From: an uncultured Acidovorax sp.
GTDB lineage: Bacteria; Pseudomonadota; Gammaproteobacteria; Burkholderiales; Burkholderiaceae_C
Reading direction: 5' to 3'
Length of the DNA: 64,000 bases
Assembly (NCBI GenBank): GCA_913774955.1
Contig: CAJYKV010000020.1
Coordinates: 1 to 64,000 of the forward strand
The translations under genes were made by a program, and so were the position numbers. The notes under the pieces are model-generated. The model had not been told where the DNA came from. It did not search any database and was given only the letters and a program-made list of their open reading frames with translations. Positions 1 to 10,134 of the stretch are shown in pieces. Within the stretch, counting starts at the first letter, position 1, and every line of letters starts with the position of its first letter.

Positions 1-1
1 G

Positions 2-97
2 TCGCTGAAAATGTGTTCGCCTCGTGAGTTCAGGCGGCAGCAGGCCGCCCGGGTGCGGCTGGAGCCATCGGTGGACCAGACGCTTTATTGCGAATAG
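2..97 (+). CDS. 3' end of an unidentified plus-strand gene, cut by the left edge
   Basis: One frame is open from the first bases of the window to a TAG at 95-97, giving 31 codons with a basic C-terminal stretch (REFRRQQAARVRLEP). I do not recognise the family. It would converge on the minus-strand operon ending at 125, only 27 bases away, so the two genes would sit tail to tail. The reading frame is short enough to be chance. The rest of 1-124 shows no terminator or other signal. Confidence 0.3.
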   Translation, partial: SLKMCSPREFRRQQAARVRLEPSVDQTLYCE

Positions 98-124
98 GAC
101 GGGGCCGGGAATACGGGGGCAACA

Positions 125-3100
125 TCATCTTGCTGCGCTGGACATGTCACCAGTTCGCTCGAGAGCGAGCGCGTAAGGCGCCGCAGCGGCCCACACGTCT
201 ACGGGAGACGTCTGCAAGCTGACTTCCCTCATAGCTGTTTCCAACAGCATCTCCTGCGCAGCGCATTTTTCTTGCCCCGTAGCAGCGAGTGCTTCCAGCG
301 ACCGTACCAGATCCATCCCGTTCAGCACGCCAGTCCGCAAAAGACCTAGCCAAATTAGGCCCGCCCGTTGGGCGACCCATTGGAGCATGCGCGCGCGCTC
401 GTTATCGTCGGGTGGCTTCGGTAATGCCATCAGCGCAGAGCACTTGTGCAGCATCCACGCTGCATCGAGGTGTGGGCGCTCTTCATCCTCGTCTCCGCAC
501 AACGCACCGAGTGCGAGCAAGGCAATCCCGAAATTATCTTCATCGCTCGCAAAGATGAAAAGCGAGCGCAGTGGCATTCCGTCGCCCGGCGTAGCCCGGC
601 AGCGCAGCAGCACCTGCTCCAGCGGAACTTGCCCGTGCCCGAGCACCTTCATGATACCCACCGCGTCCTCGCCGCTGACACCGGGCTGGGCGAGCAGGTC
701 CAGCAAGCTCTCGCTCCACACCGGGAAGTGCATTTTTGCGGCTTCGGCCATTGCGACGAGCACAGCCGGCGCCCACCGGCCAGACACGACTTCGCCCGCC
801 ATTGCGATGCCTTCCAGGTCTTCTACTGTGCGTTCGGGCGGCTCGCCGATCTCCTGCGCGATGCCGCGCGCTTGATCTGCCGCCTCCCGCATCCAGCCCA
901 GTTCGGCAAGTGTTTTCACCGCATGCAGCCGCACCGCCGCGAGGATCTTCCTGTCCTGCATCACCTGAACAAGGCGCGGGGCGTCGCCCAGTTGGCCCAG
1001 GCAGCGCACCGCAAACTGCGCGGTAATGGGGCCTATACCGCTCGCACGGATAACACGCACGATGTGTTCTGCACAGCCCATGTCCATGAGGTTGCGGATC
1101 TCATTGGCTCCACCTCGCGCGCCGGGAGCAACCAGCGCATGCAGGCACTCGTCCGCGGCAAGATCTACCTGCCCGGTCCGTCCAAGGTTGACTACACAGT
1201 TATCCCACTTCGATGTGCCGCGCAACTGCGCCAGCAGCTTGACTATGCGAGCGCGTGGCGCCTCGTCGCCGTCCGCCGCGATCCAGGCCAGCATCGCTGC
1301 AAAGCGCGTCGTGAGCGGCACCGCCTCAGATGCGACGACGCGATCCAAGATGTCGAGCCGCCGTGCATGGCCCAGGCTCCCCATCAGCGTGGTCCGCGCG
1401 GCATCGTCTAGCTCAGTATCCTGCAGCAACAACAGCATCGCATCGGTATCGATGGGCGCCGCGGGCTCAGCGAAAATCCTAGCGGCTTGCGCATACGCAT
1501 GCACCGCAGGCTCGGCTGCGCTACTGCACAGCGCATACACCCACGTGGCGCATGGTTGAGTATCCATGCCTGGCGCGCTCATGGCAGCGAGGACAGCCGT
1601 CGTCGAAGACTTCAGTGGTGGGCGCTGCACGATGCCGGGTACCGCCAATGCGCGCCGCAGCATCGGGATGTCTCCTTCGCGCCCGACGTAAAAATCGCAG
1701 AAGCCCAAAAGCTCCCTGGCCTGTGCGGCCATCTCATCGTCACGGTAGCGCCGCCATCCGGCGGCCGCCGCAGCGAAACGGGTGTCGGGCGGGATGTCAC
1801 CACTTTCAAGTATGGCACGCAAGTGCTCGCGGGAGCAGTACTCCGCGATCACCTCAGCCACTCTCCACTCATCTGCCTCGCGGCGCTTGCGCTCACCCGC
1901 CTCATAGCGAAGTGCCTCAATCATTGGAGGAGCAGCCGCTTCGCCGTCGCCCGCACGTACCAACAGTGTGGCGGCGGCGAGCGCTACGCCGGGCTCAGCA
2001 TCCAGGTAGCGGCGCAATGCGCGGCTGCCGGCTTGGTCCAGCGTAAGCTCAAGAAAGGCCCACGTACGTATGGCGCACTGCTCCGGGTTTTCGTCGAACT
2101 CCTTAAGTAGCAATTCGACGAAGCGTTCGCGCCGTGTGAGCAGGCGCAGCACGTCCAGCGGGTTCGGTGAGCGAAACTCCGAGAATAGTTCGGCGCAAGG
2201 ATTCCACGAACCCAGCCGGTTGAACAGCGCGGCGGTCACCTGCGCTTCGTTCTCTGGCGGCAGTTGCACCCCCTGGGCTAACGCCATTCCGACGAACTGC
2301 AGCGCGCTGCGCGAGCGTTCCATCAGCGGTGCCAGCAGCAACCAAATTTCGCTCTGCGCTGCTTCACCTTGTTCGCTCCAGCGCGCTAGCGCCAGCAGCA
2401 CGATCTCGCGCCAACGCGGCTCCGACCACGTGCGCACTATGGGCCACATGGCGGCAGCCTGTGGCGGCGTGTCGGCTGTGATCGACTGAGCAGCCAGGGC
2501 CTCACGGATTGTGTTGTGGAAGTACTCCAAGCGGCCCGCTACACCGCTGATAAACAAGCCGCAGCCCAGCATGAGATCGTTCATCAGCACCCATTGCTGA
2601 TCGGCTTGTACCGAGCCGAAGGGCACTATTGGCAGCACTCCGTCCTCTTGCGCGATACGCACAAGGGGTTGTACAAAGTCGTCCGCGCCCAGGCCCGTCT
2701 TGCCTGCCTGAATTTCGACCGCCAGACGCCTGGAAAAATCTAGGCGTTTGCCCCACAGCACATTCGCGAGTGCCTTGCCGTCGCGTGAACGATTCAGTTC
2801 GACGCACAGGTTCTCGAAGTCCTCCCACGCTTTCGCCCCACGTTCTTGCAGCATGAGATCTATAAAGCGGTCGTACAGCTCGCTGCGACGGCGCGGCAGT
2901 GTGCGGCTCGGCGAGCGCTCGAACACGACCGCCGCCATGGTCGCCAGCGCGGGAATTGCGGCCAGCCCCTCTATGCGCGACAGCCGAAGCTCTTCCATAA
3001 ACTCCTGCGCTAGTCGGTGCTGCGCCTGGCCGGAGAACCACGCGCTGGCGAAGGCCTCCAACTGCAGGTCAGTGAAGGGTTGCAACACGAAGTGCTGCGC

Positions 3101-4285
3101 CAGCGAAGGCGGGAACTCGTCCAGTGACGCCAGCGGGCGGCTGGCGATCAACAGACGTAGAGGGCTGCTGCGGAACGAAAGCATGTTGCGGAGCAGCCGC
3201 TCTACTATGCTGCTGCGGTCGTGCACATTGACGACCTCATCTAGGCCGTCCACCATCAGCAGCCATGATGCTCCAGGTGGGAGCGACTGCGCATCGCCAT
3301 GCAGTTCCGCGTCCAGCACCGCCCGCCAATCCGAGGCTACGAGCTTGGCCGCGTGGACGATTATTGGCACAAGCTTACGCGCGTGGCGCGTGCGCCAATG
3401 CTTCACCGCGAGCAATGCGAGCCATCGCAATAGCACAGATTTGCCGGTGCCAGGGTCGCCGCGTAGTACCAGATGCCTCGTGTCCTCGTACAGCACATCT
3501 AGCAGGGAGTCGGCACCGCGCATTCCTCGCGGCGGCGTAGCGCCGCCCCCGCGCTGCGGGTTGTGTGGCGCGCGGAAGCGGGGCGCGGTGAAGATGTCAG
3601 AGAGCCTCGGCGCAGCCCGCCGCAGGAATGGTAGGCGGTGGGTCGGCCTGTCCCACTCCACTTCCTGGCGTGAGAAATAGTTCGAAATGGTGCTGGTCGA
3701 TAGCCAATGAGGCGACGCGCGGTCGCGCCACTTTGGCAATTGAGTCCACGCATCGTCCAGCCGCGTGGCGAAAAGCGTGATCTGTGCCAAGTCCTCCGGA
3801 TAGCCGGTAAGCACGCCGATGACCGCTCCACGAGCATCAAGCACTGGCGCGCCCGACAGTCCACGGAGAAAAGGCTTGGGACCTTGCGCGCAATTCAGTA
3901 CGAGATGGTGCATGCCGTTCGCTGAGGAGCGGGGCGATGACACCGTGCCATTTAGCGGAAAGCCCCCCGGATGCCCTAGCGGATAGCCCCAGCTGTGCCA
4001 AGCGTCATCCCGGCGCATGTCGCCGTCGTCATTCATAGGGAGCGCTGGGGCAGCCAGCTTGCGCTCATCGAAACGTAGCAATGCCACATCGTACTGCGCG
4101 CTGTGGCCAATGCATCGTGCGCTGGCCTCGCCAGCAGCGCACCAAAGCAATTGCCTGTCGACACGCTCCACTACGTGCCATGCCGTGATGGCAAGTCCAG
4201 GGTCGCACACCCATGCGGTGCCCAGATGAGTGCGCTCATGGTCCGCGGCGCAGACCATGAGGATGCACTGGTCCAGCGAGTGCAT
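125..4285 (-). CDS. Trypsin-like protease fused to NACHT (STAND) NTPase, putative conflict/defence protein
   Basis: This is a 1386-residue protein. Residues 1 to about 185 form a trypsin-like serine protease fold with a full triad: His37 in TAWHVVE, Asp66 in YDVALL and Ser144 in RGLSGAPV. A NACHT-type NTPase follows, with Walker A GDPGTGKS (276-283) and Walker B LLMVDGLDE (342-350). The remaining 900 or so residues are helix-rich with Leu/Ala-dense stretches, which suits a winged-helix and alpha-solenoid sensor, though no repeat was recognised by name. Proteases fused to STAND NTPases are known from bacterial antiviral NTPases and from NTP-dependent conflict systems. No signal peptide or membrane segment is seen, so it should be cytoplasmic. 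It is the last gene of a three-gene minus-strand operon, starting 6 bases after the hydrolase stop, with GGAAG about 10 bases before its ATG. Sampled GC is near 60%, unlike the core. The domain call is firm; the defence role is inferred. Confidence 0.88.
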   Translation of the reverse strand: MHSLDQCILMVCAADHERTHLGTAWVCDPGLAITAWHVVERVDRQLLWCAAGEASARCIGHSAQYDVALLRFDERKLAAPALPMNDDGDMRRDDAWHSWGYPLGHPGGFPLNGTVSSPRSSANGMHHLVLNCAQGPKPFLRGLSGAPVLDARGAVIGVLTGYPEDLAQITLFATRLDDAWTQLPKWRDRASPHWLSTSTISNYFSRQEVEWDRPTHRLPFLRRAAPRLSDIFTAPRFRAPHNPQRGGGATPPRGMRGADSLLDVLYEDTRHLVLRGDPGTGKSVLLRWLALLAVKHWRTRHARKLVPIIVHAAKLVASDWRAVLDAELHGDAQSLPPGASWLLMVDGLDEVVNVHDRSSIVERLLRNMLSFRSSPLRLLIASRPLASLDEFPPSLAQHFVLQPFTDLQLEAFASAWFSGQAQHRLAQEFMEELRLSRIEGLAAIPALATMAAVVFERSPSRTLPRRRSELYDRFIDLMLQERGAKAWEDFENLCVELNRSRDGKALANVLWGKRLDFSRRLAVEIQAGKTGLGADDFVQPLVRIAQEDGVLPIVPFGSVQADQQWVLMNDLMLGCGLFISGVAGRLEYFHNTIREALAAQSITADTPPQAAAMWPIVRTWSEPRWREIVLLALARWSEQGEAAQSEIWLLLAPLMERSRSALQFVGMALAQGVQLPPENEAQVTAALFNRLGSWNPCAELFSEFRSPNPLDVLRLLTRRERFVELLLKEFDENPEQCAIRTWAFLELTLDQAGSRALRRYLDAEPGVALAAATLLVRAGDGEAAAPPMIEALRYEAGERKRREADEWRVAEVIAEYCSREHLRAILESGDIPPDTRFAAAAAGWRRYRDDEMAAQARELLGFCDFYVGREGDIPMLRRALAVPGIVQRPPLKSSTTAVLAAMSAPGMDTQPCATWVYALCSSAAEPAVHAYAQAARIFAEPAAPIDTDAMLLLLQDTELDDAARTTLMGSLGHARRLDILDRVVASEAVPLTTRFAAMLAWIAADGDEAPRARIVKLLAQLRGTSKWDNCVVNLGRTGQVDLAADECLHALVAPGARGGANEIRNLMDMGCAEHIVRVIRASGIGPITAQFAVRCLGQLGDAPRLVQVMQDRKILAAVRLHAVKTLAELGWMREAADQARGIAQEIGEPPERTVEDLEGIAMAGEVVSGRWAPAVLVAMAEAAKMHFPVWSESLLDLLAQPGVSGEDAVGIMKVLGHGQVPLEQVLLRCRATPGDGMPLRSLFIFASDEDNFGIALLALGALCGDEDEERPHLDAAWMLHKCSALMALPKPPDDNERARMLQWVAQRAGLIWLGLLRTGVLNGMDLVRSLEALAATGQEKCAAQEMLLETAMREVSLQTSPVDVWAAAAPYALALERTGDMSSAAR

Positions 4286-4291
4286 GTGCTG

Positions 4292-5425
4292 CTACTTCCA
4301 GGCCGCCACCAGTTCCGGGCTGCGCCAATAAACGGAATGTAGCCAGCCGCCTGCTTCAGCGATGGTGCTCGCACTAGCCTGCACCTGGATATCCTGCGGC
4401 GCGCTATCGCCGCTCAGGCGGAACACAGTGGACGTAACGAATGCCAGCACGTCGAGTGGATGCCAGAGGTTAGTCCAGCGCGCGATGGAGCCAGGCAAGT
4501 CCACAGGATGTCCTTGCCGGTAAGGTGATAGACCGTTACGCGGCGTCATAATGTGAAAGAACGCAGGCTGGCTACCGAAGGTGACGAGCTGCCCGACATG
4601 GAGCGTGCGCCCGCATGCACCTAGCGCAGCGTCCAGTACCAGCAGACCGCCCAGGCTGTGCGCCATGACGTGCACTGGCTTGCCCTCTGCGCCCCAGCCC
4701 GGAGCGCTAGCGTCCAGCCGCTCGAATAGACGCTTATGGATGCGCTGGCGATTCTGGTGGTAACCCACAACGTCACCCAGCGTCAGCGCGATCGGCCCGG
4801 CCAGCTTGCCTCGCACGAACTGATTCAGCGTGCCGCCCAACGCACCCGTGAGCTTGCCAATCATCGCGTCGGCGGCGTTGATCACCCCTTTTACCGCCCC
4901 AAACACTGACGACGCGAGGTCAGTGCGTACGGTGATGCCTGCGCTGCGCACGCCGAGGTCGCTGCCGGGCAGCTGCGTCGCGAGTGCGGCGGCGACTAGG
5001 TCTCCCACTGCGTTGAGCACGTCCGGGTCGGTCACGTCTTTCACGAAAGCCGATTGCGACACCGCCACGCGGATGGCTTCCTGTACATCCGTCTGGGGGG
5101 CAGCTCGCACGCCGAAGCCGCCTTGGGCCACCGTCCTGCCTGTCACTCGCACCGCGATGGCCTGCGCCGCTGGCATGCCGCCATTCACCACTGTATGCGC
5201 GCGCGTGAGGTGTTCGTGAAAGTCGCTATCGTCCCCGCCCAACGGGAATATTGCTGGCAGCGAATCCACCAACCCATTGCTGATGCCGCCCAGGTCGCCC
5301 CAGTACACGTCGATCAGCTTGTAGCGGTCTCCTACCTGCTCTTGGAGCCACTCGCATTGCGCAAGGAAACCCTCACGCGAGCGGTTCGCGATGCCATGCA
5401 CCACGAGAATGGGTTCAACGTTCAT
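4292..5425 (-). CDS. Alpha/beta-hydrolase (lipase/esterase-like), middle gene of conflict operon
   Basis: This 377-residue protein opens with a hydrolase beta strand and oxyanion region (ILVVHGIANRS, residues 6-16). It carries a nucleophile elbow AHSLGG with Ser257. Candidate acid and base are Asp325 (HPLDVLAF) and His363 (WLHSVYW), giving a plausible complete triad. About 180 residues rich in Gly/Ala/Val separate the first strand from the elbow; they may form a lid or membrane-contacting segment. No signal peptide is seen. Its ATG overlaps the CHAT gene stop by four bases (ATGA), and the NACHT gene follows 6 bases after its own stop, so the three products are probably made in fixed ratio. 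Bacterial homologues are usually annotated as lipase or serine esterase. The substrate is unknown; a phospholipid target would fit an abortive effector but is not shown by the sequence. Confidence 0.8.
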   Translation of the reverse strand: MNVEPILVVHGIANRSREGFLAQCEWLQEQVGDRYKLIDVYWGDLGGISNGLVDSLPAIFPLGGDDSDFHEHLTRAHTVVNGGMPAAQAIAVRVTGRTVAQGGFGVRAAPQTDVQEAIRVAVSQSAFVKDVTDPDVLNAVGDLVAAALATQLPGSDLGVRSAGITVRTDLASSVFGAVKGVINAADAMIGKLTGALGGTLNQFVRGKLAGPIALTLGDVVGYHQNRQRIHKRLFERLDASAPGWGAEGKPVHVMAHSLGGLLVLDAALGACGRTLHVGQLVTFGSQPAFFHIMTPRNGLSPYRQGHPVDLPGSIARWTNLWHPLDVLAFVTSTVFRLSGDSAPQDIQVQASASTIAEAGGWLHSVYWRSPELVAAWK

Positions 5426-7401
5426 GGTGTGTCTGCTCCCTGGGTTTGCAACACAGCGTCTGGATGGCCGAAAAAGGAATAGGCGAAGCGCGTCGGGTCA
5501 CCCGGCCCGCCGCATTTCGTGCGGGCGCGCTGGAAGGCCGCGCCTAGCGGCTGGTTCAGCCGTGCCTGCTCGTAGAACTCCTTGGCAAAGATTAATGCGG
5601 TTTCATCGCGCACTTCCCAGTTGCTGCCTATGAAGGCGCCTGCACCGGCCTTGAGGAACCTGGCGGCCCAACTGGTGCCCCCCAGCCACTGCACCGTGGG
5701 TGCGGCGCTGGCGCATGCATTGATGAACACCAGTGGCATATGTTCGAGGACGCCCTCTAGATGCGGGCCCAGCATGGACTGCAAGAACGGCTTGTCCAGC
5801 GAGATGAAGCTGGCGGCCGCATCGCCATAGCAGATGTTGTTGTGTGCCGCGATGTGTAGCAGACCCATGCCGGCACGCCTGATGCCTTTGTTGAGCTCGT
5901 CTACTGTTTTCCAGACGGCATCCGATGGAAATATTCCTTGCAGCGTATCGATCTCGTCGTGGGCGGCTGGCGGGGCCTCGGCCGGTATGACGTACACAGG
6001 AGGCCCTGAGCCAACGTCAATTGGTGCGCCTTCGCCAAAACGCCAGCGGGTGACCAGCCACCTGTCGGAAATGAAACCCATGAGCGGACCACCGGGGGAA
6101 AAGGCAAAGAGCAACTCCCACGGCAACATGTCATCGTTGGAGACAATGTCCAGGCGGTCAATGCCGTCCCAGCACCTCGCAAGCACGACCTTGATTCTGT
6201 CCGGAAGAAGTCGGGACCACATCTCGGAGCCAATCCCGATGAGCACCGCCTCCACGGCTTCTTTTGAATATCCGGCAGTTCCACGCGTAAGCTCGTTGGC
6301 CTGCGCCATCAACTTGGGCACAAGTGTGTCGAGGTCTTCGTCTAGCACCAACTCGGCTTCATGTGTGCCGGCTGCATCGCCGAGCAGCATGAACCTGTAT
6401 ATGCGACCTGGCCGCGAGTACGTGATCGTAAGCGTCGCCCGGCGTGCTACTGGCGTTGTCGCCACGATGCCCGACTTCACGTCCTGCAAGTCGGGCGCGC
6501 CCTTATTCGCGACAAGTATGCCAATACGAAGGTCACCGAGGTACGCTTGCTCTGTGCGTGCGCGCAGCACAGCGCTGGCCGAGCCGAGCGCTGCGGCCTG
6601 CAGGTCGATCTCGATCGTCGAAGACTTCTTCCCTGGTAACACCCGAACTTGCAGGCTGGCGGAGCCCAGCAGTTTCAGTTCCCCCTCCACGAGAGTTTCG
6701 ATCGTGACCATCAGGCCGTTCTTCGGAATGGCGACCTCGGCCAGAGGCGCGGAGGAACCTTCGGGGGCTGGCGCGATGTCGATGCACGCGACAATCGAAA
6801 ACTTGGCGCCCAAGGCAATTACGGACGGCGCGCGAGCGCTGAGATAGCGCTTTTCGAACTTTGGGAGCGAGGCTGAAATTCCGCTGTCCTGAGCGGGTGT
6901 CTCCAAACCTGCAGCCGGACCTTGTTCCTCCGCGGAAGTGTTTGGTGTGACCACAGCCGAGTCAACTCCACGGCCCGATGGTTGGTCAATACCCTTGAGG
7001 GAGCTTTGCCTGCCGGTGGCCATGGGCACCGTGTACGGCTTGACTGCGCGGGAATAATGGGTTGTCTTAATTCCACGCCCTAAAATTTGAGCGGTTTGGA
7101 TTTTCAGGGGCATGAGCCTTGAGATGTGGGCCTGCCCCTGACTCCGCGGGATTCGTAAACTCATGCGATGGAGTTCCCTGAACTCATCCCAAGTCATGCG
7201 ATGGAGTTTTGTCAGTTCAGCCCAAGCTTGCTGGAACTGAGCGCTGTGAGTGCGGCGTACCTGTTCCACACTTCTGAAATCCAGCACCAGCCGACGCAGC
7301 AGCGCCGGATCGTCAGGAGTTCTGGCATGGCGGATTGCAGTCTCGAAGTACCGACTCAGCCTGACGTTGACCAGTTTTTCTTCGACTCTCCTTTTGTACA
7401 T
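5422..7401 (-). CDS. CHAT-domain (caspase-like) protease, first gene of conflict operon
   Basis: The product is 659 residues from the ATG at 7401. The C-terminal 250 or so residues form a CHAT domain: the catalytic His lies in LLHIAAHNN (about residue 520) and the catalytic Cys in FINACAS (about residue 563), followed by the family-typical GAGAFIGSNWEV strand. Upstream, residues 1-110 are charged and helical, about 110-175 is a low-complexity linker, and about 180-370 looks beta-rich without a recognised family. The start is fixed by a strong GGAGGAG four bases before the ATG; an upstream TTG in the same frame would start inside that ribosome site. CHAT proteases in bacteria act in conflict systems, cleaving partner proteins once a sensor fires. 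Here the obvious partners are the co-translated hydrolase and the protease-NACHT protein. Domain identity is clear; the target is unknown. Confidence 0.85.
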   Translation of the reverse strand: MYKRRVEEKLVNVRLSRYFETAIRHARTPDDPALLRRLVLDFRSVEQVRRTHSAQFQQAWAELTKLHRMTWDEFRELHRMSLRIPRSQGQAHISRLMPLKIQTAQILGRGIKTTHYSRAVKPYTVPMATGRQSSLKGIDQPSGRGVDSAVVTPNTSAEEQGPAAGLETPAQDSGISASLPKFEKRYLSARAPSVIALGAKFSIVACIDIAPAPEGSSAPLAEVAIPKNGLMVTIETLVEGELKLLGSASLQVRVLPGKKSSTIEIDLQAAALGSASAVLRARTEQAYLGDLRIGILVANKGAPDLQDVKSGIVATTPVARRATLTITYSRPGRIYRFMLLGDAAGTHEAELVLDEDLDTLVPKLMAQANELTRGTAGYSKEAVEAVLIGIGSEMWSRLLPDRIKVVLARCWDGIDRLDIVSNDDMLPWELLFAFSPGGPLMGFISDRWLVTRWRFGEGAPIDVGSGPPVYVIPAEAPPAAHDEIDTLQGIFPSDAVWKTVDELNKGIRRAGMGLLHIAAHNNICYGDAAASFISLDKPFLQSMLGPHLEGVLEHMPLVFINACASAAPTVQWLGGTSWAARFLKAGAGAFIGSNWEVRDETALIFAKEFYEQARLNQPLGAAFQRARTKCGGPGDPTRFAYSFFGHPDAVLQTQGADTP

Positions 7402-7540: not shown

Positions 7541-8541
7541 CGGGAACCGCTCAAAACCCCGCTACTCGCTCGTTCACCGACAAGACCTGAGCCCCGCCCT
7601 GCCATGATCACTGCTCGCAGCGCCTTGAAGTTCGATCTGTTTGCCGAGGCCTCGCGCCAGCACAAGATAGATGGAAGTGGGCGATCCGCTGCAGGTGATA
7701 GCGCGGCACATCGACTTCGCCGAGCTGGCGCGGCTGGTGGATGCACTCATCGAGCGCAGCGATGGTCGCAATGGTGGTCGGCCGGCCTATTCCACCGAGG
7801 TAATGGTTCGCATCCTGGTCTTGAAGCGCCTGTACAACCTCTCGGACGAGCAGATGGAATACCAGTTGCTGGACCGCGCAAGCTACCAGCGCTTTTGCCT
7901 GCTGAAGGATGCGATGAACGTGCCGGACCGCAACACGATCTGGCGCTTCGGCGAGCGGCTGGGCGTGGATGGCGCCACGGCGTTGTTCCAGGGGGTGGGT
8001 GCGCAACTGCACCGCCATGGGTATATCGCCCGGGGTGGGCAGGCCATCGATGCGACGCTGGTACTCGCGCCGCGCCAGCACATCGGCCGGGAAGACAGGC
8101 AGGCTCTGCAGCAGGGCCAGCAGCCGGGCTGGAGCGATGCCCGGCGCAGGCAAAAAGATGTGGATGCCACGCACACGAAGAAGCACGGCAGGAGCTGCTT
8201 CGGCTACAAGCTCAGCGTGAGCGTGGACCTCAAGCACGGCTTCATCCGTAGGATCGCCACGGGCACGGCCAGCGAGCACGACGGACACCACTTCGACGAA
8301 GTGCTGGACCTGCACAACACCGGACGGGGCGTGCATACGGACAAGGCCTACGCGAGCCGGCAACGCCAGCAGCTACTCAAGGTGTTGGGCTTCGTGGACG
8401 CGATGCAACGCCGGGCCCGGCCGGGCAAGCCCCTGAGCGAGTGTCAGACGCGGCGCAACCAGCGCATTGCCAGCAAGCATGCCCGGATCGAGCATGCGTT
8501 TAATGATGCGGCTTTGGGCGGCCTTTTGACGATGAAGTGGA
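7541..8541 (+). mobile_element. Remnant of an IS5-family insertion sequence, right end lost
   Basis: Only the transposase body is recognisable. No pair of terminal inverted repeats could be matched: the right end is deleted where the transposase frame meets the hairpin at 8542, and the left end is unclear, with GGAACCGCTCAAAACCCC near 7541-7558 as a weak candidate. No target duplication can be given. The remnant marks the join between lower-GC accessory sequence and the core chromosome. Confidence 0.5.
7604..8541 (+). pseudogene. IS5-family transposase, frameshifted near the N-terminus and truncated at the C-terminus
   Basis: The main frame starts at 7671 (MEVGDPLQVIARHIDF) and matches IS5-group DDE transposases through the segments EVMVRILVLKRLYNLSDEQM, FCLLKDAMNVPDRNTIWRF, QAIDATLV and GVHTDKAY. 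The typical N-terminus (ALKFDLFAEASRQHKID) lies just upstream from an ATG at 7604 in another frame. Deleting one G at 7673/7674 would restore KIDEVGDPL, so a single-base insertion has split the gene. The match ends near RIEHAF (about 8505). The frame then runs through host hairpin sequence to a stop at 8615, so the last 50 or so residues and the right end of the element are missing. It cannot make a full transposase unless a shorter product from 7671 works. It sits between the defence-like operon and the core efflux genes. Confidence 0.8.
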
Positions 8542-8568
8542 AATGGAATCCGGTCGCGAGATTCCATT
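8542..8568 (-). terminator. Hairpin downstream of the efflux operon, possible terminator
   Basis: Perfect 9-base arms AATGGAATC and GATTCCATT flank a 9-base loop. It lies 19 bases past the stop of the outer-membrane channel gene read on the minus strand. There is no clean U tract (only a few T follow), so it is a weak terminator candidate or an RNA-stabilising stem. Confidence 0.4.
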
Positions 8569-8586
8569 CGCGACCCGACTCCCACC

Positions 8587-10134
8587 TCACTCCCACCCCC
8601 CACCCAACGCCATAAACACCGCCACCTGCTCCTGCGCCACCCGCGCCTTCGCGGCGGCGAGATTGGCCTCCGCGGTGGCCAGCGAGCGCTGCGCATCCAG
8701 CGTATCGAGATACGCGCTGCGGCCGCTCACATACAGGCGCTGGGCCTGCCCCGCCACCTGGGCGCTGTCGTCCCGGGCGCGCTGGAGCGCTTCCACGCTG
8801 ACCAGTTCCTGCCGGTAGGCCGACAGCGCGGTCTCGGTCTCGCGCAGGGCCTGCAGCACGGCGCCGTCGAAGCTGGCCAGGGCCATGCGGGTGCCGGCCT
8901 CGGCGCCGGCGATGCGCGCGCGGACGGCGCCGGTGTTGGGCAGGGTCCAGCGGATGAGGGGGCCGAGGTTCCAGGCGAAGGTGTCGCGGCCCAGGAAATC
9001 GCCGGCCGGCCCGGCGGAGCTGGCGGACAGGCCCAGCGACACCTTGGGGTAGAGCTGTGCGGTGGCCACGCCGATGCGGGCGGTGGCGGCGGCCAGTTGG
9101 CGCTCGCTGCGCCGCAGATCGGGCCGCCGGCGCAGCAGCGCGGCGCCGTCGCCCACGGGCAGGGCGCCGGCCACCTGGGGCACGGCGGCGCATTGCTGCA
9201 CCGATGCCGGCAGCGCGCCCGGCGTGCGGCCCAGCCAGGCCGCCAGTTGGTACAGCGCGGCCTGGCGCTGCGCGCGCAGCGCGGGGGGCGATGCTTCCAG
9301 CTGGGCGAGCAGCCCGCGCGAGCGCGCCAGGTCGGTGGCGCCGGCGCGGCCCGCGTCGTGCAGGCGCTGCACCACGCCCAGTTGTTCTTTCTGCAGCGCG
9401 ACGGAGGATTCGGCCACCTTCAATTGCTGGCCGGTGGCGCAGGCCAGGGCGTAGGCGCGCGCGGTGCCGGCGGCCACGTTCACGCGGGCCAGATCGACCG
9501 CGGCCGCCGCGGCCGCGGAGTCGGCCTGCGCGGCTTCGGCGGCGCGCCGCAGTTCGCCCACCACGTCGATCTGGTAGGACAGGCCGCCCTCCAGCCGGTA
9601 GGCGAACTGGTTGGAAGGGCTGAGGCCCGATGCGAGTTCCGACAGGCCCGAGACATGGCCGAAGCCCGGGCCGCCGGAGACCGACAGCTGCGGCTGTTCG
9701 GCGGCCCGCACCTGGGCCAGCGTGGCGTTCTGCAGCTCCAGGTTGGCGGCGGCGACGCGCAGGTCGGTGTTGTGCGTCAGCGCCTCCTGCACCAGCGCGT
9801 CGAGCGTCGGGTCGCGGAACAGGTGCCACCAGCGCGGCGGCAGGGGCTCGGTGGAGAGGGCGGCATGGGCGCCGGGCGTTGTCGACTGCGCCTGCGCCTG
9901 CGCCTCCTGGAAGGGGCGGGCCGCGGCCGGATTGCGCACGGCCGCCTCGGCGGGCACATGGTAGTCGGGCCCGACGGCCAGGCTGCCGCAGCCGGCCAGG
10001 AGGAGGGCGGCGAAGAGGGGCGTGGCCCGCCGGGCAAGGCCGGCAGCGCGGGGCAGGGCCGTGCGCAAATGGGCAGTGCGTAAAAGGGCAGTGCGTAAAG
10101 GGGCAGTGCGTAAAGGGGCGGTGCGGCGTCTCAT
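8587..10134 (-). CDS. Outer-membrane efflux lipoprotein (NodT/OprM family)
   Basis: This 515-residue TolC-like channel completes a tripartite pump. Its lipoprotein signal ends in LLLAGC (Cys at about residue 50) followed by GSLAVGPDYHVP, a family hallmark. Two outer-membrane-efflux domains follow (about 95-290 and 315-505), with the usual repeated Ala/Leu-rich coiled helices and motifs such as RRPDLRRSERQLAAATARIGVA. It is the last gene of the MarR-led operon, its start overlapping the end of the adaptor gene. Oddity: the N-terminus before the signal core is lengthened by a run of RTAPL-type pentapeptides encoded by a 15-base tandem repeat, so the true start may lie further in, although only the ATG at 10134 gives the tight operon spacing. 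Confidence 0.9.
   Translation of the reverse strand: MRRRTAPLRTAPLRTALLRTAHLRTALPRAAGLARRATPLFAALLLAGCGSLAVGPDYHVPAEAAVRNPAAARPFQEAQAQAQSTTPGAHAALSTEPLPPRWWHLFRDPTLDALVQEALTHNTDLRVAAANLELQNATLAQVRAAEQPQLSVSGGPGFGHVSGLSELASGLSPSNQFAYRLEGGLSYQIDVVGELRRAAEAAQADSAAAAAAVDLARVNVAAGTARAYALACATGQQLKVAESSVALQKEQLGVVQRLHDAGRAGATDLARSRGLLAQLEASPPALRAQRQAALYQLAAWLGRTPGALPASVQQCAAVPQVAGALPVGDGAALLRRRPDLRRSERQLAAATARIGVATAQLYPKVSLGLSASSAGPAGDFLGRDTFAWNLGPLIRWTLPNTGAVRARIAGAEAGTRMALASFDGAVLQALRETETALSAYRQELVSVEALQRARDDSAQVAGQAQRLYVSGRSAYLDTLDAQRSLATAEANLAAAKARVAQEQVAVFMALGGGWE
10061..10120. repeat. Four tandem copies of a 15-base unit in the channel gene
   Basis: On the plus strand the units read GTGCGCAAATGGGCA, GTGCGTAAAAGGGCA, GTGCGTAAAGGGGCA and GTGCGTAAAGGGGCG. 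The unit length is a multiple of three, so copy changes keep the frame and only lengthen the basic n-region of the lipoprotein signal by five residues each. Confidence 0.85.

What the first reader, a model, noticed from the sequence alone, without database searches (positions are those of the whole stretch)
125..7401. Coupled three-hydrolase operon: CHAT protease, alpha/beta hydrolase, trypsin-NACHT
Seen: three minus-strand genes joined by a 4-base overlap and a 6-base gap, each with intact catalytic residues (His/Cys; Ser257/Asp325/His363; His37/Asp66/Ser144 plus Walker A/B). Known: trypsin, CHAT, lipase-like hydrolases and STAND/NACHT NTPases are building blocks of bacterial NTP-dependent conflict and antiphage systems. 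Inference: the NACHT protein senses a trigger, its protease or the CHAT protease activates the hydrolase by cleavage, and the hydrolase damages membranes or metabolites to stop phage. I do not know this exact three-gene set as a described system.
Basis: partly seen in the sequence, partly recalled or inferred. Interest (0 to 1): 0.88.

Follow-up and report, generated by a model that had tools for sequence, protein, structure and literature searches.

The report
Protease-paired hydrolase with swappable sensors
A bacterial gene cassette pairs a caspase-like protease with a lipase-like enzyme that carries what look like three built-in cutting sites, and different bacteria attach different sensor domains to the same pair.

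Summary
In detail: three minus-strand genes, CHAT protease (7401-5422), alpha/beta hydrolase (5425-4292) and HtrA-type protease-NACHT (4285-125), joined by a 4-base overlap and a 6-base gap. The NACHT gene is 78 codons shorter than its near-identical Paracidovorax oryzae relative.

The recurring unit is the CHAT-hydrolase pair, not the trio. CHAT lies directly upstream of the hydrolase in 14 of 25 scanned loci plus three others, across several phyla. The window's NACHT protein recurs with it only in P. oryzae; elsewhere TerB, TCAD7, vWA, NACHT or NNH1-ParA modules take its place. Most examined distant hydrolase relatives sit beside caspase/VMAP genes, a pairing already published.

New here: the hydrolases carry a 127-160-residue insert (58 in five solo relatives). 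Three [VLT]R[GSADE] sites recur in it at corresponding places in 17 of 19 CHAT-type hydrolases (shuffle mean 0.3). The one with none is the one known to lack a CHAT neighbour. Nine distant relatives have the insert but never the triple.

Best reading: a zymogen hydrolase that CHAT activates by cutting at arginines, under an exchangeable sensor, probably for defence. Pairing, sites and homology are shown; cleavage and function are inferred.

The parts
5422..7401 (-). CHAT-domain protease gene (659 aa): uncharacterised N-terminus, an Ig-like region (my reading; aligned to weak DUF7363 matches in relatives, no such match in the window protein itself), C-terminal CHAT domain with His520 and Cys563
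4292..5425 (-). alpha/beta hydrolase gene (377 aa), triad Ser257/Asp325/His363
4895..5284 (-). insert of the hydrolase (residues 48-177, 130 aa); the same span is 58 aa in five solo relatives
5201..5203 (-). Arg75, candidate cleavage site 1 (HLTR/AHTV; weak form)
5105..5107 (-). Arg107, candidate cleavage site 2 (FGVR/AAPQ)
4946..4948 (-). Arg160, candidate cleavage site 3 (LGVR/SAGI)
125..4285 (-). HtrA-like protease-NACHT gene with a long C-terminal part that looks helical-repeat-like (my reading) (1386 aa; 78 codons shorter than the P. oryzae copy)
3812..4222 (-). Trypsin_2/HtrA-like domain (residues 22-158; His37, Asp66, Ser144)
3032..3475 (-). NACHT NTPase domain (residues 271-418; Walker A GDPGTGKS, Walker B region LLMVDGLDE)
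1..127 (.). contig-end sequence, also at the start of contig C8, standing where L025 has the 3' end of the NACHT gene
7671..8615 (+). DDE transposase (DUF772/DDE_Tnp_1) next to the operon: mobile surroundings

Best explanation
The CHAT gene and the hydrolase gene form a protease-zymogen pair. The hydrolase is made in a restrained state; its insert (about residues 48-177) covers or blocks the active site. When a linked sensor is triggered, the CHAT protease becomes active, cuts the insert after arginine at up to three sites of the type [VLT]R|[GSADE], and so releases an active lipase/esterase that damages membranes or another essential ester and stops growth or kills the cell. The sensor is exchangeable: in the window it is the separate HtrA-NACHT protein; elsewhere other modules are fused to CHAT or encoded beside it (TerB, TCAD7, vWA, NACHT, NNH1-ParA). 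Shown here: gene pairing, module exchange, conserved catalytic residues, insert, three sites, homology to the caspase/VMAP-paired hydrolases. Inferred: cleavage, its direction (CHAT cuts hydrolase), the lipid substrate, activation by the NACHT protein, and phage as the trigger.
For: CHAT directly upstream of the hydrolase, same strand, in 14 of 25 loci of a hydrolase-seeded scan and in L004, L056, L057. Spacing is -8 to +33 nt in 15 of these 17 pairs, exactly -4 in six of them and in the window; L035 is +71, L036 +9 or +72 by choice of start. CHAT-seeded reverse test: of 299 genomes, 4 (the window's included) have E<1e-100 and all 4 are followed by the hydrolase. Ser/Asp/His and His/Cys invariant. 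Insert 127-160 aa in 19 CHAT-type hydrolases, 124-190 in nine distant relatives, 58 in 5 of 5 scored solo forms. All three sites in 17 of 19 CHAT-type hydrolases (shuffle mean 0.316, maximum 3 in 1000), in 0 of 9 distant and 0 of 5 solo forms; L038, the only CHAT-type form with none, has no CHAT match within its 21-kb locus. Later-fetched L056 and L057: 11 sites in the insert against 2.3 expected. Profile match to five distant hydrolases: probability 99.9, E 1.1e-31. By analogy, CHAT proteases encoded next to gasdermins activate them by cleavage in fungi (passages of PMC12881547 and PMC10197012).
Against: The motif and the three position windows were set after seeing the sequences; only L057 is a fairly separate test (41% identical to the window; L056 is 74% identical to L027). 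The window's own site 1 is weak and L048 lacks site 2. Single blocks are also filled in the controls: 1, 3 and 5 of 9 distant forms, 3, 2 and 1 of 5 solo forms (against 18, 17 and 18 of 19). The motif also exceeds shuffles in the Ig+CHAT part of CHAT proteins (78 against 53) and in the rest of the solo hydrolases (13 against 5.7), so excess alone is not proof of cutting. CHAT linkers show only a borderline excess (17 against 11.2, p 0.05). No structure could be predicted and the S1 pocket of this CHAT group was not determined. No substrate is known. The window NACHT gene is shortened, so this copy may be partly inactive.
Confidence: 0.5

Rival explanations
1. CHAT and the hydrolase are parallel effectors in one complex; the Arg motifs are docking sites or structural turns, and the hydrolase is not cleaved.
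For: The [VLT]R[GSADE] or narrower motif is also above shuffle in Ig+CHAT regions and in the rest of solo hydrolases; some block-2 and block-3 hits lie in helix-like sequence (e.g. AVRDAV). Kaur et al. 2020 say only that caspase and hydrolase operate together.
Against: Three sites at corresponding places in an otherwise variable insert, tied to the kind of protease partner (17 of 19 against 0 of 9 and 0 of 5).
Confidence: 0.25
2. The HtrA-type protease fused to NACHT, not CHAT, activates the hydrolase; CHAT is a second effector.
For: HtrA-like domain with its triad and NACHT are in one protein.
Against: Among the loci the window NACHT protein matches only L025, yet the sites are present in the others. 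The residue six before the catalytic Ser is Pro138, not the Asp of Arg-cutting trypsins (sequence, with a recalled rule).
Confidence: 0.08
3. A non-defence regulated lipase system (stress, development or self-recognition) with the same protease-zymogen logic.
For: Window neighbours are a fusaric-acid-type efflux operon, a photolyase and a transposase, with no PADLOC defence match apart from two 17-bit CARF hits. PADLOC has no model for the CHAT or hydrolase protein.
Against: Mobile, patchy distribution: operon dS 0.020-0.029 against 0.27 for a flanking gene, lower G+C than the surroundings, a plasmid copy with a type III restriction system about 6 kb from the hydrolase, modules named for conflict systems (TCAD7) or STAND proteins (NNH1, NACHT).
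Confidence: 0.15

Closest known systems
alpha/beta-hydrolase-caspase pairs of MoxR-vWA-VMAP ternary conflict systems (Kaur et al. 2020, eLife e52696; passages seen)
   Same: Homologous hydrolase (profile match 99.9%) beside a caspase-fold protease gene in an NTPase-linked operon; relatives found here fit it (L058 and L061 with VMAP and C14 domains, L005 and L060 with VMAP-C).
   Different: CHAT instead of C14 caspase; CHAT precedes the hydrolase; no MoxR, vWA or VMAP domain in the three window proteins; triple Arg sites seen only in the CHAT type. The word CHAT does not occur in that paper.
Two-gene clusters of CHAT protease and gasdermin (fungi, bacteria; reviews PMC10197012 and PMC12881547, passages seen)
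   Same: A CHAT protease gene next to the gene of a membrane-damaging effector that it activates by cleavage.
   Different: The effector here is an alpha/beta hydrolase, not a pore former; cleavage is predicted at internal Arg sites of an insert.
bNACHT/Avs-type STAND antiphage proteins (recalled; EruA in NCBIfam)
   Same: NACHT NTPase with N-terminal protease domain and long C-terminal part; weak match to EruA (35 bits, cut-off 1000).
   Different: Encoded with a CHAT-hydrolase pair; no Avs match in PADLOC (its best match is RT-Protease_XI, 31 bits, on the protease domain).
Craspase/TPR-CHAT and other CRISPR-linked CHAT proteases (recalled)
   Same: A CHAT protease switched on by a sensor to cut a partner; the nearest PDB chain is 8tl0 'CHAT domain-containing protein' (E 1.9e-5), TPR-CHAT chains and separase follow at E 0.1-0.4. 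I did not establish what 8tl0 is.
   Different: The linked modules here are NACHT, TerB, vWA or TCAD7, and the partner is an enzyme; CRISPR arrays were not searched for.

Membership tests
MoxR-vWA-VMAP ternary system | MoxR AAA+ ATPase, vWA and VMAP genes in the operon | tested here: not met
   Pfam on the three window proteins gives none of them
Caspase-superfamily peptidase paired with alpha/beta hydrolase | Caspase-fold protease gene adjacent to a hydrolase gene | tested here: met
   CHAT adjacent to hydrolase in window and 17 other loci; Pfam CHAT
Caspase-superfamily peptidase paired with alpha/beta hydrolase | Hydrolase homologous to the VMAP-associated one | tested here: met
   hhalign probability 99.9, E 1.1e-31, against five distant hydrolases, of which three lie beside VMAP domains (L005, L058, L061) and two beside annotated caspases (L059, L063)
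STAND/NACHT antiphage protein | NACHT domain with Walker A and B | tested here: met
   PF05729 34.8 bits, cut-off 26.7; Walker motifs read in the sequence
STAND/NACHT antiphage protein | Match to a described Avs/bNACHT family | tested here: not met
   No Avs match in PADLOC; EruA 35 bits against cut-off 1000
CHAT peptidase | CHAT domain with catalytic His and Cys | tested here: met
   43.8 bits against 24; His and Cys invariant in 11 rows
CHAT peptidase | Proteolysis of a partner protein | not testable with these tools
   no biochemical assay; structure prediction switched off
alpha/beta hydrolase (lipase/esterase) | Nucleophile elbow, Asp, His in order | tested here: met
   H256-S257-L258-G259, D325 and H363 invariant in 16 rows; Pfam matches weak

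The most novel reading that the evidence does not exclude
A general immune effector cassette not described in the papers I could search: CHAT proteases activate a lipase-like zymogen by excising pieces of its insert at three arginine sites, and evolution plugs this two-gene cassette into very different sensors (NACHT, TerB, TCAD7, vWA, NNH1-ParA), in parallel with a caspase/VMAP-linked branch that keeps the insert but uses another cutting rule.
Probability: 0.4. Interest if true: 0.82.

Novelty: new variant of a known kind. Interest (0 to 1): 0.62.

Why it matters
If true, it supplies a concrete, testable activation step for a protease-hydrolase pairing noted in 2020 (in the passages seen, without a named cutting site in the hydrolase), and predicts the cutting sites residue by residue. 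It would put a protease-activated lipase beside the pore-forming gasdermins among microbial cell-death effectors, and show how one effector cassette is re-used under many sensors.

Tried and rejected
Rejected: the three-gene set as the conserved unit. NACHT_WIN matched only L025 among the loci. Of 13 plasmid records with a NACHT relative I looked at 3 (L064-L066, 26-30% identity); none has a CHAT or hydrolase match. Rejected: the trypsin-like domain as the likely Arg cutter (HtrA-like). Inconclusive: autoprocessing sites in CHAT linkers (p 0.05). No relatives: viral contigs, phage records for the hydrolase.

Rarity. Hydrolase profile or protein hits: class 2 of 274 genomes at E<=0.001, one being the window genome and one weak; phylum 15 of 398 at E<=0.001, most weak; family 6 of 250 at E<=1e-15; order 1 of 389, the window itself; phylum 2 of 378. 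Only 4 to 7 candidates per genome are scored in most of these runs, so these are lower bounds. The 25-locus scan used two peptide patterns from two CHAT-paired hydrolases; it is neither complete nor unbiased.

Papers. Searches: no listed title or abstract start describes a CHAT-hydrolase pair; passages were opened for PMC8195603, PMC7159879, PMC10910872, PMC10907252, PMC12881547 and PMC10197012 and none seen describes one. Most subscription papers and preprints are not held.

Rows left out. Site counts omit L025 (near copy of the window), L042, L044, L046, L049 (partial or weak). The 19 'CHAT-type' rows include L038 (no CHAT neighbour) and L029 (contig starts 67 bases before the hydrolase). 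Of the nine distant relatives, 7 lie beside VMAP or caspase genes; L022 and L062 have neighbours without a Pfam match; L060 is a short annotated form. Other distant hits (L003, L010-L021, L024, L054, L055) were not analysed for sites. In one search the frame was picked wrongly for L047 and L057; their spacing is.
Full report
What is there. The window starts at base 1 of contig C20 of its genome (contig length 332,042). On the minus strand lie a 659-aa CHAT protein, a 377-aa alpha/beta hydrolase and a 1386-aa HtrA-like-protease/NACHT protein. The CHAT and hydrolase genes overlap by 4 bases; the next gap is 6 bases. G+C is 0.59-0.64 over the first 8 kb against 0.68-0.75 from 8 to 34 kb. A transposase gene (7671-8615), a fusaric-acid-type efflux operon (OEP, HlyD, FUSC and MarR proteins) and a photolyase follow.

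Near copy and mobility. The same three genes lie in Paracidovorax oryzae ATCC 19882 (L025). The operon is 98.9% identical in DNA there, while the shared efflux flanks are about 90% identical. dS is 0.020-0.029 for the three genes and 0.27 for the flanking FUSC gene; dN/dS of the three genes is 0.24-0.28, from few substitutions. The operon was therefore exchanged recently and appears constrained. The NACHT gene of the window ends 78 codons earlier than in L025. The sequence beyond also stands at the start of contig C8, and the missing part was not found in the held assembly. A full-length copy exists in P. oryzae.

The recurring unit. A scan of the genome collection (one genome for each of 84,980 species) with a two-row hydrolase alignment gave 25 loci. 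In 14 of 25 a CHAT gene lies directly upstream on the same strand (L025-L028, L030-L037, L047, L048). Of the rest, L029 starts 67 bases before the hydrolase (undecidable), L038 has no CHAT match, and eight Planctomycete loci (L039-L046) and L049 have none. L004 (a Hymenobacter plasmid), L056 and L057 (family relatives) add three pairs. Spacing is -8 to +33 nt in 15 of these 17 pairs and exactly -4 in six of them and in the window. The scan was seeded with hydrolases already known to lie next to CHAT, so it favours pairs. The reverse test, seeded with Ig-CHAT regions of paired proteins, found 35 of 299 family genomes at E<=1e-15; the 4 beyond E 1e-100 (window, G809, G744, G916) are all followed by the hydrolase, and the next two (G735, G685) show none in the 14-16 kb fetched. 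G916 holds the same contig as L027.

Sensors change. Pfam on CHAT partners (10 proteins; L047, L056, L057, the large L004 CHAT and the second L036 CHAT; L034 and L035 not scanned) finds TCAD7 (L056 89.8 bits; L027 23.8, just under its cut-off of 24), vWA (L032, L033), NNH1 plus a ParA-type ATPase (L037), a weak NACHT (L036, 24.3 bits against 26.7), and TerB on an overlapping upstream ORF (L004). L048 has a separate NACHT gene upstream (35.8 bits). A DUF7363 match before CHAT passes its cut-off only in L056, is weak in others, and is absent from the window protein. L026, L028, L030, L031, L047, L048 and L057 show no known sensor domain on CHAT itself. The window's NACHT protein is thus one of several alternatives.

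Link to published systems. Seven of nine distant hydrolase relatives lie beside VMAP or caspase genes: L058 (VMAP-M4 and C14) and L061 (VMAP-C and C14), L005 and L060 (VMAP-C), L059 and L063 (annotated caspase; C14 20.3 bits against 21.4 in L063), L023 (C14 18.0 bits, below cut-off); L022 and L062 have no Pfam match in the neighbours scanned. Profile comparison of five of them with the CHAT type gives probability 99.9 and E 1.1e-31 over most of the length. Kaur et al. 2020 (eLife e52696; passages seen) state that whenever a VMAP has a caspase domain a neighbouring alpha/beta-hydrolase gene is always present, and propose proteolytic release of effectors in general. The word CHAT is absent from that paper and, as a whole word, from the 2021 follow-up (PMC8195603). 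A 2024 PNAS paper (PMC10907252, passages) mentions a CHAT domain in a diversified sensor; the word hydrolase has no occurrence in it. Two reviews of fungal immunity (PMC12881547, PMC10197012; passages) describe two-gene clusters in which a CHAT protease activates a neighbouring gasdermin by cleavage, with similar clusters in bacteria: the closest published logic.

Insert and sites. Taking window residues 48-177 as reference, the insert is 127-160 aa in 19 CHAT-type hydrolases, 124-190 in the nine distant ones and 58 in five scored Planctomycete forms. In 17 sequences (including L029 and L038) the motif [VL]R[GSAD] occurs 65 times in the insert against 13.0 in shuffles, and 18 against 20.0 elsewhere in the proteins. 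Two sequences fetched later (L056, L057) give 11 against 2.3; the nine distant ones 10 against 7.6; the solo forms 3 against 2.1 in the insert but 13 against 5.7 elsewhere. In a position test with the wider [VLT]R[GSADE], all three blocks are filled in 17 of 19 CHAT-type sequences (shuffle mean 0.316, maximum 3 in 1000 runs), in 0 of 9 distant and 0 of 5 solo sequences; single blocks are filled in 18, 17 and 18 of 19, 1, 3 and 5 of 9, and 3, 2 and 1 of 5 (in the short solo forms the windows overlap). L048 has two of three. L038 has none and is the only one of the 19 known to lack a CHAT neighbour. The commonest residue at P3 is Gly (27 of 81 sites), and Gly, Asp, Ala and Ser lead at P1'; P2 is set by the motif's definition. 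Motif and windows were chosen after seeing the alignment.

Mechanism. The likeliest reading is a zymogen: CHAT, when freed by its sensor, cuts the insert at up to three arginines and releases an active lipase/esterase. Arg cutting by caspase-fold proteases (metacaspases, gingipain R, separase) is recalled knowledge. The HtrA-like domain of the window protein has Pro, not Asp, six residues before its Ser, so Arg preference is not expected from it (inference). Against this reading stand the post hoc choice of motif, the weak first site of the window, motif excess in other parts of some proteins, and the lack of structure or assay.

Defence. The evidence is indirect: mobility; patchiness (no CHAT match at E<=1e-15 in the same-genus genomes G485, G648 and G910; no hydrolase match in G485 and G648); modules named for conflict or STAND systems; and a type III restriction system about 6 kb from the hydrolase on the Hymenobacter plasmid. 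No PADLOC model matched the window's CHAT or hydrolase. Among seven further window proteins, the transposase and two L025 neighbours PADLOC gave only two 17-bit CARF hits on a MarR regulator; of seven neighbours of other loci scanned besides the plasmid restriction pair, none matched.

Verdict. New variant of a known kind: the CHAT branch of the protease-hydrolase pairing, with a specific, testable activation rule. The trio as such is, in the data seen, a local arrangement of Paracidovorax.

Noticed in passing
window 10056-10125: In-frame 15-bp tandem repeat (4.7 copies) near the start of the efflux outer-membrane protein gene (8587-10134); most of that stretch is not covered by the DNA match to P. 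oryzae L025.
   Followed up: partly
L036:5882-14009: Streptomyces viridochromogenes has CHAT-hydrolase followed by a convergent second CHAT gene whose N-terminal part matches sigma-70 region 2.
   Followed up: partly
L004:9440-15880: Hymenobacter plasmid carries a TerB protein, a small CHAT, the hydrolase and a second, large CHAT in a row, near a type III restriction-modification pair.
   Followed up: partly
L067 (Agrobacterium Ti plasmid pTiCFBP5877), 2189-12236: Three CHAT genes, two TIR genes, a metallophosphoesterase and a caspase gene close together on a Ti plasmid (as annotated).
   Followed up: no
window 7161-7226: Two imperfect 33-bp repeats in the N-terminal part of the CHAT gene.
   Followed up: no
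L039-L046: Phycisphaeraceae/Planctomycetota carry relatives of the hydrolase without a CHAT neighbour; the five scored have a short insert and keep the Ser and Asp; possible ancestral form.
   Followed up: partly
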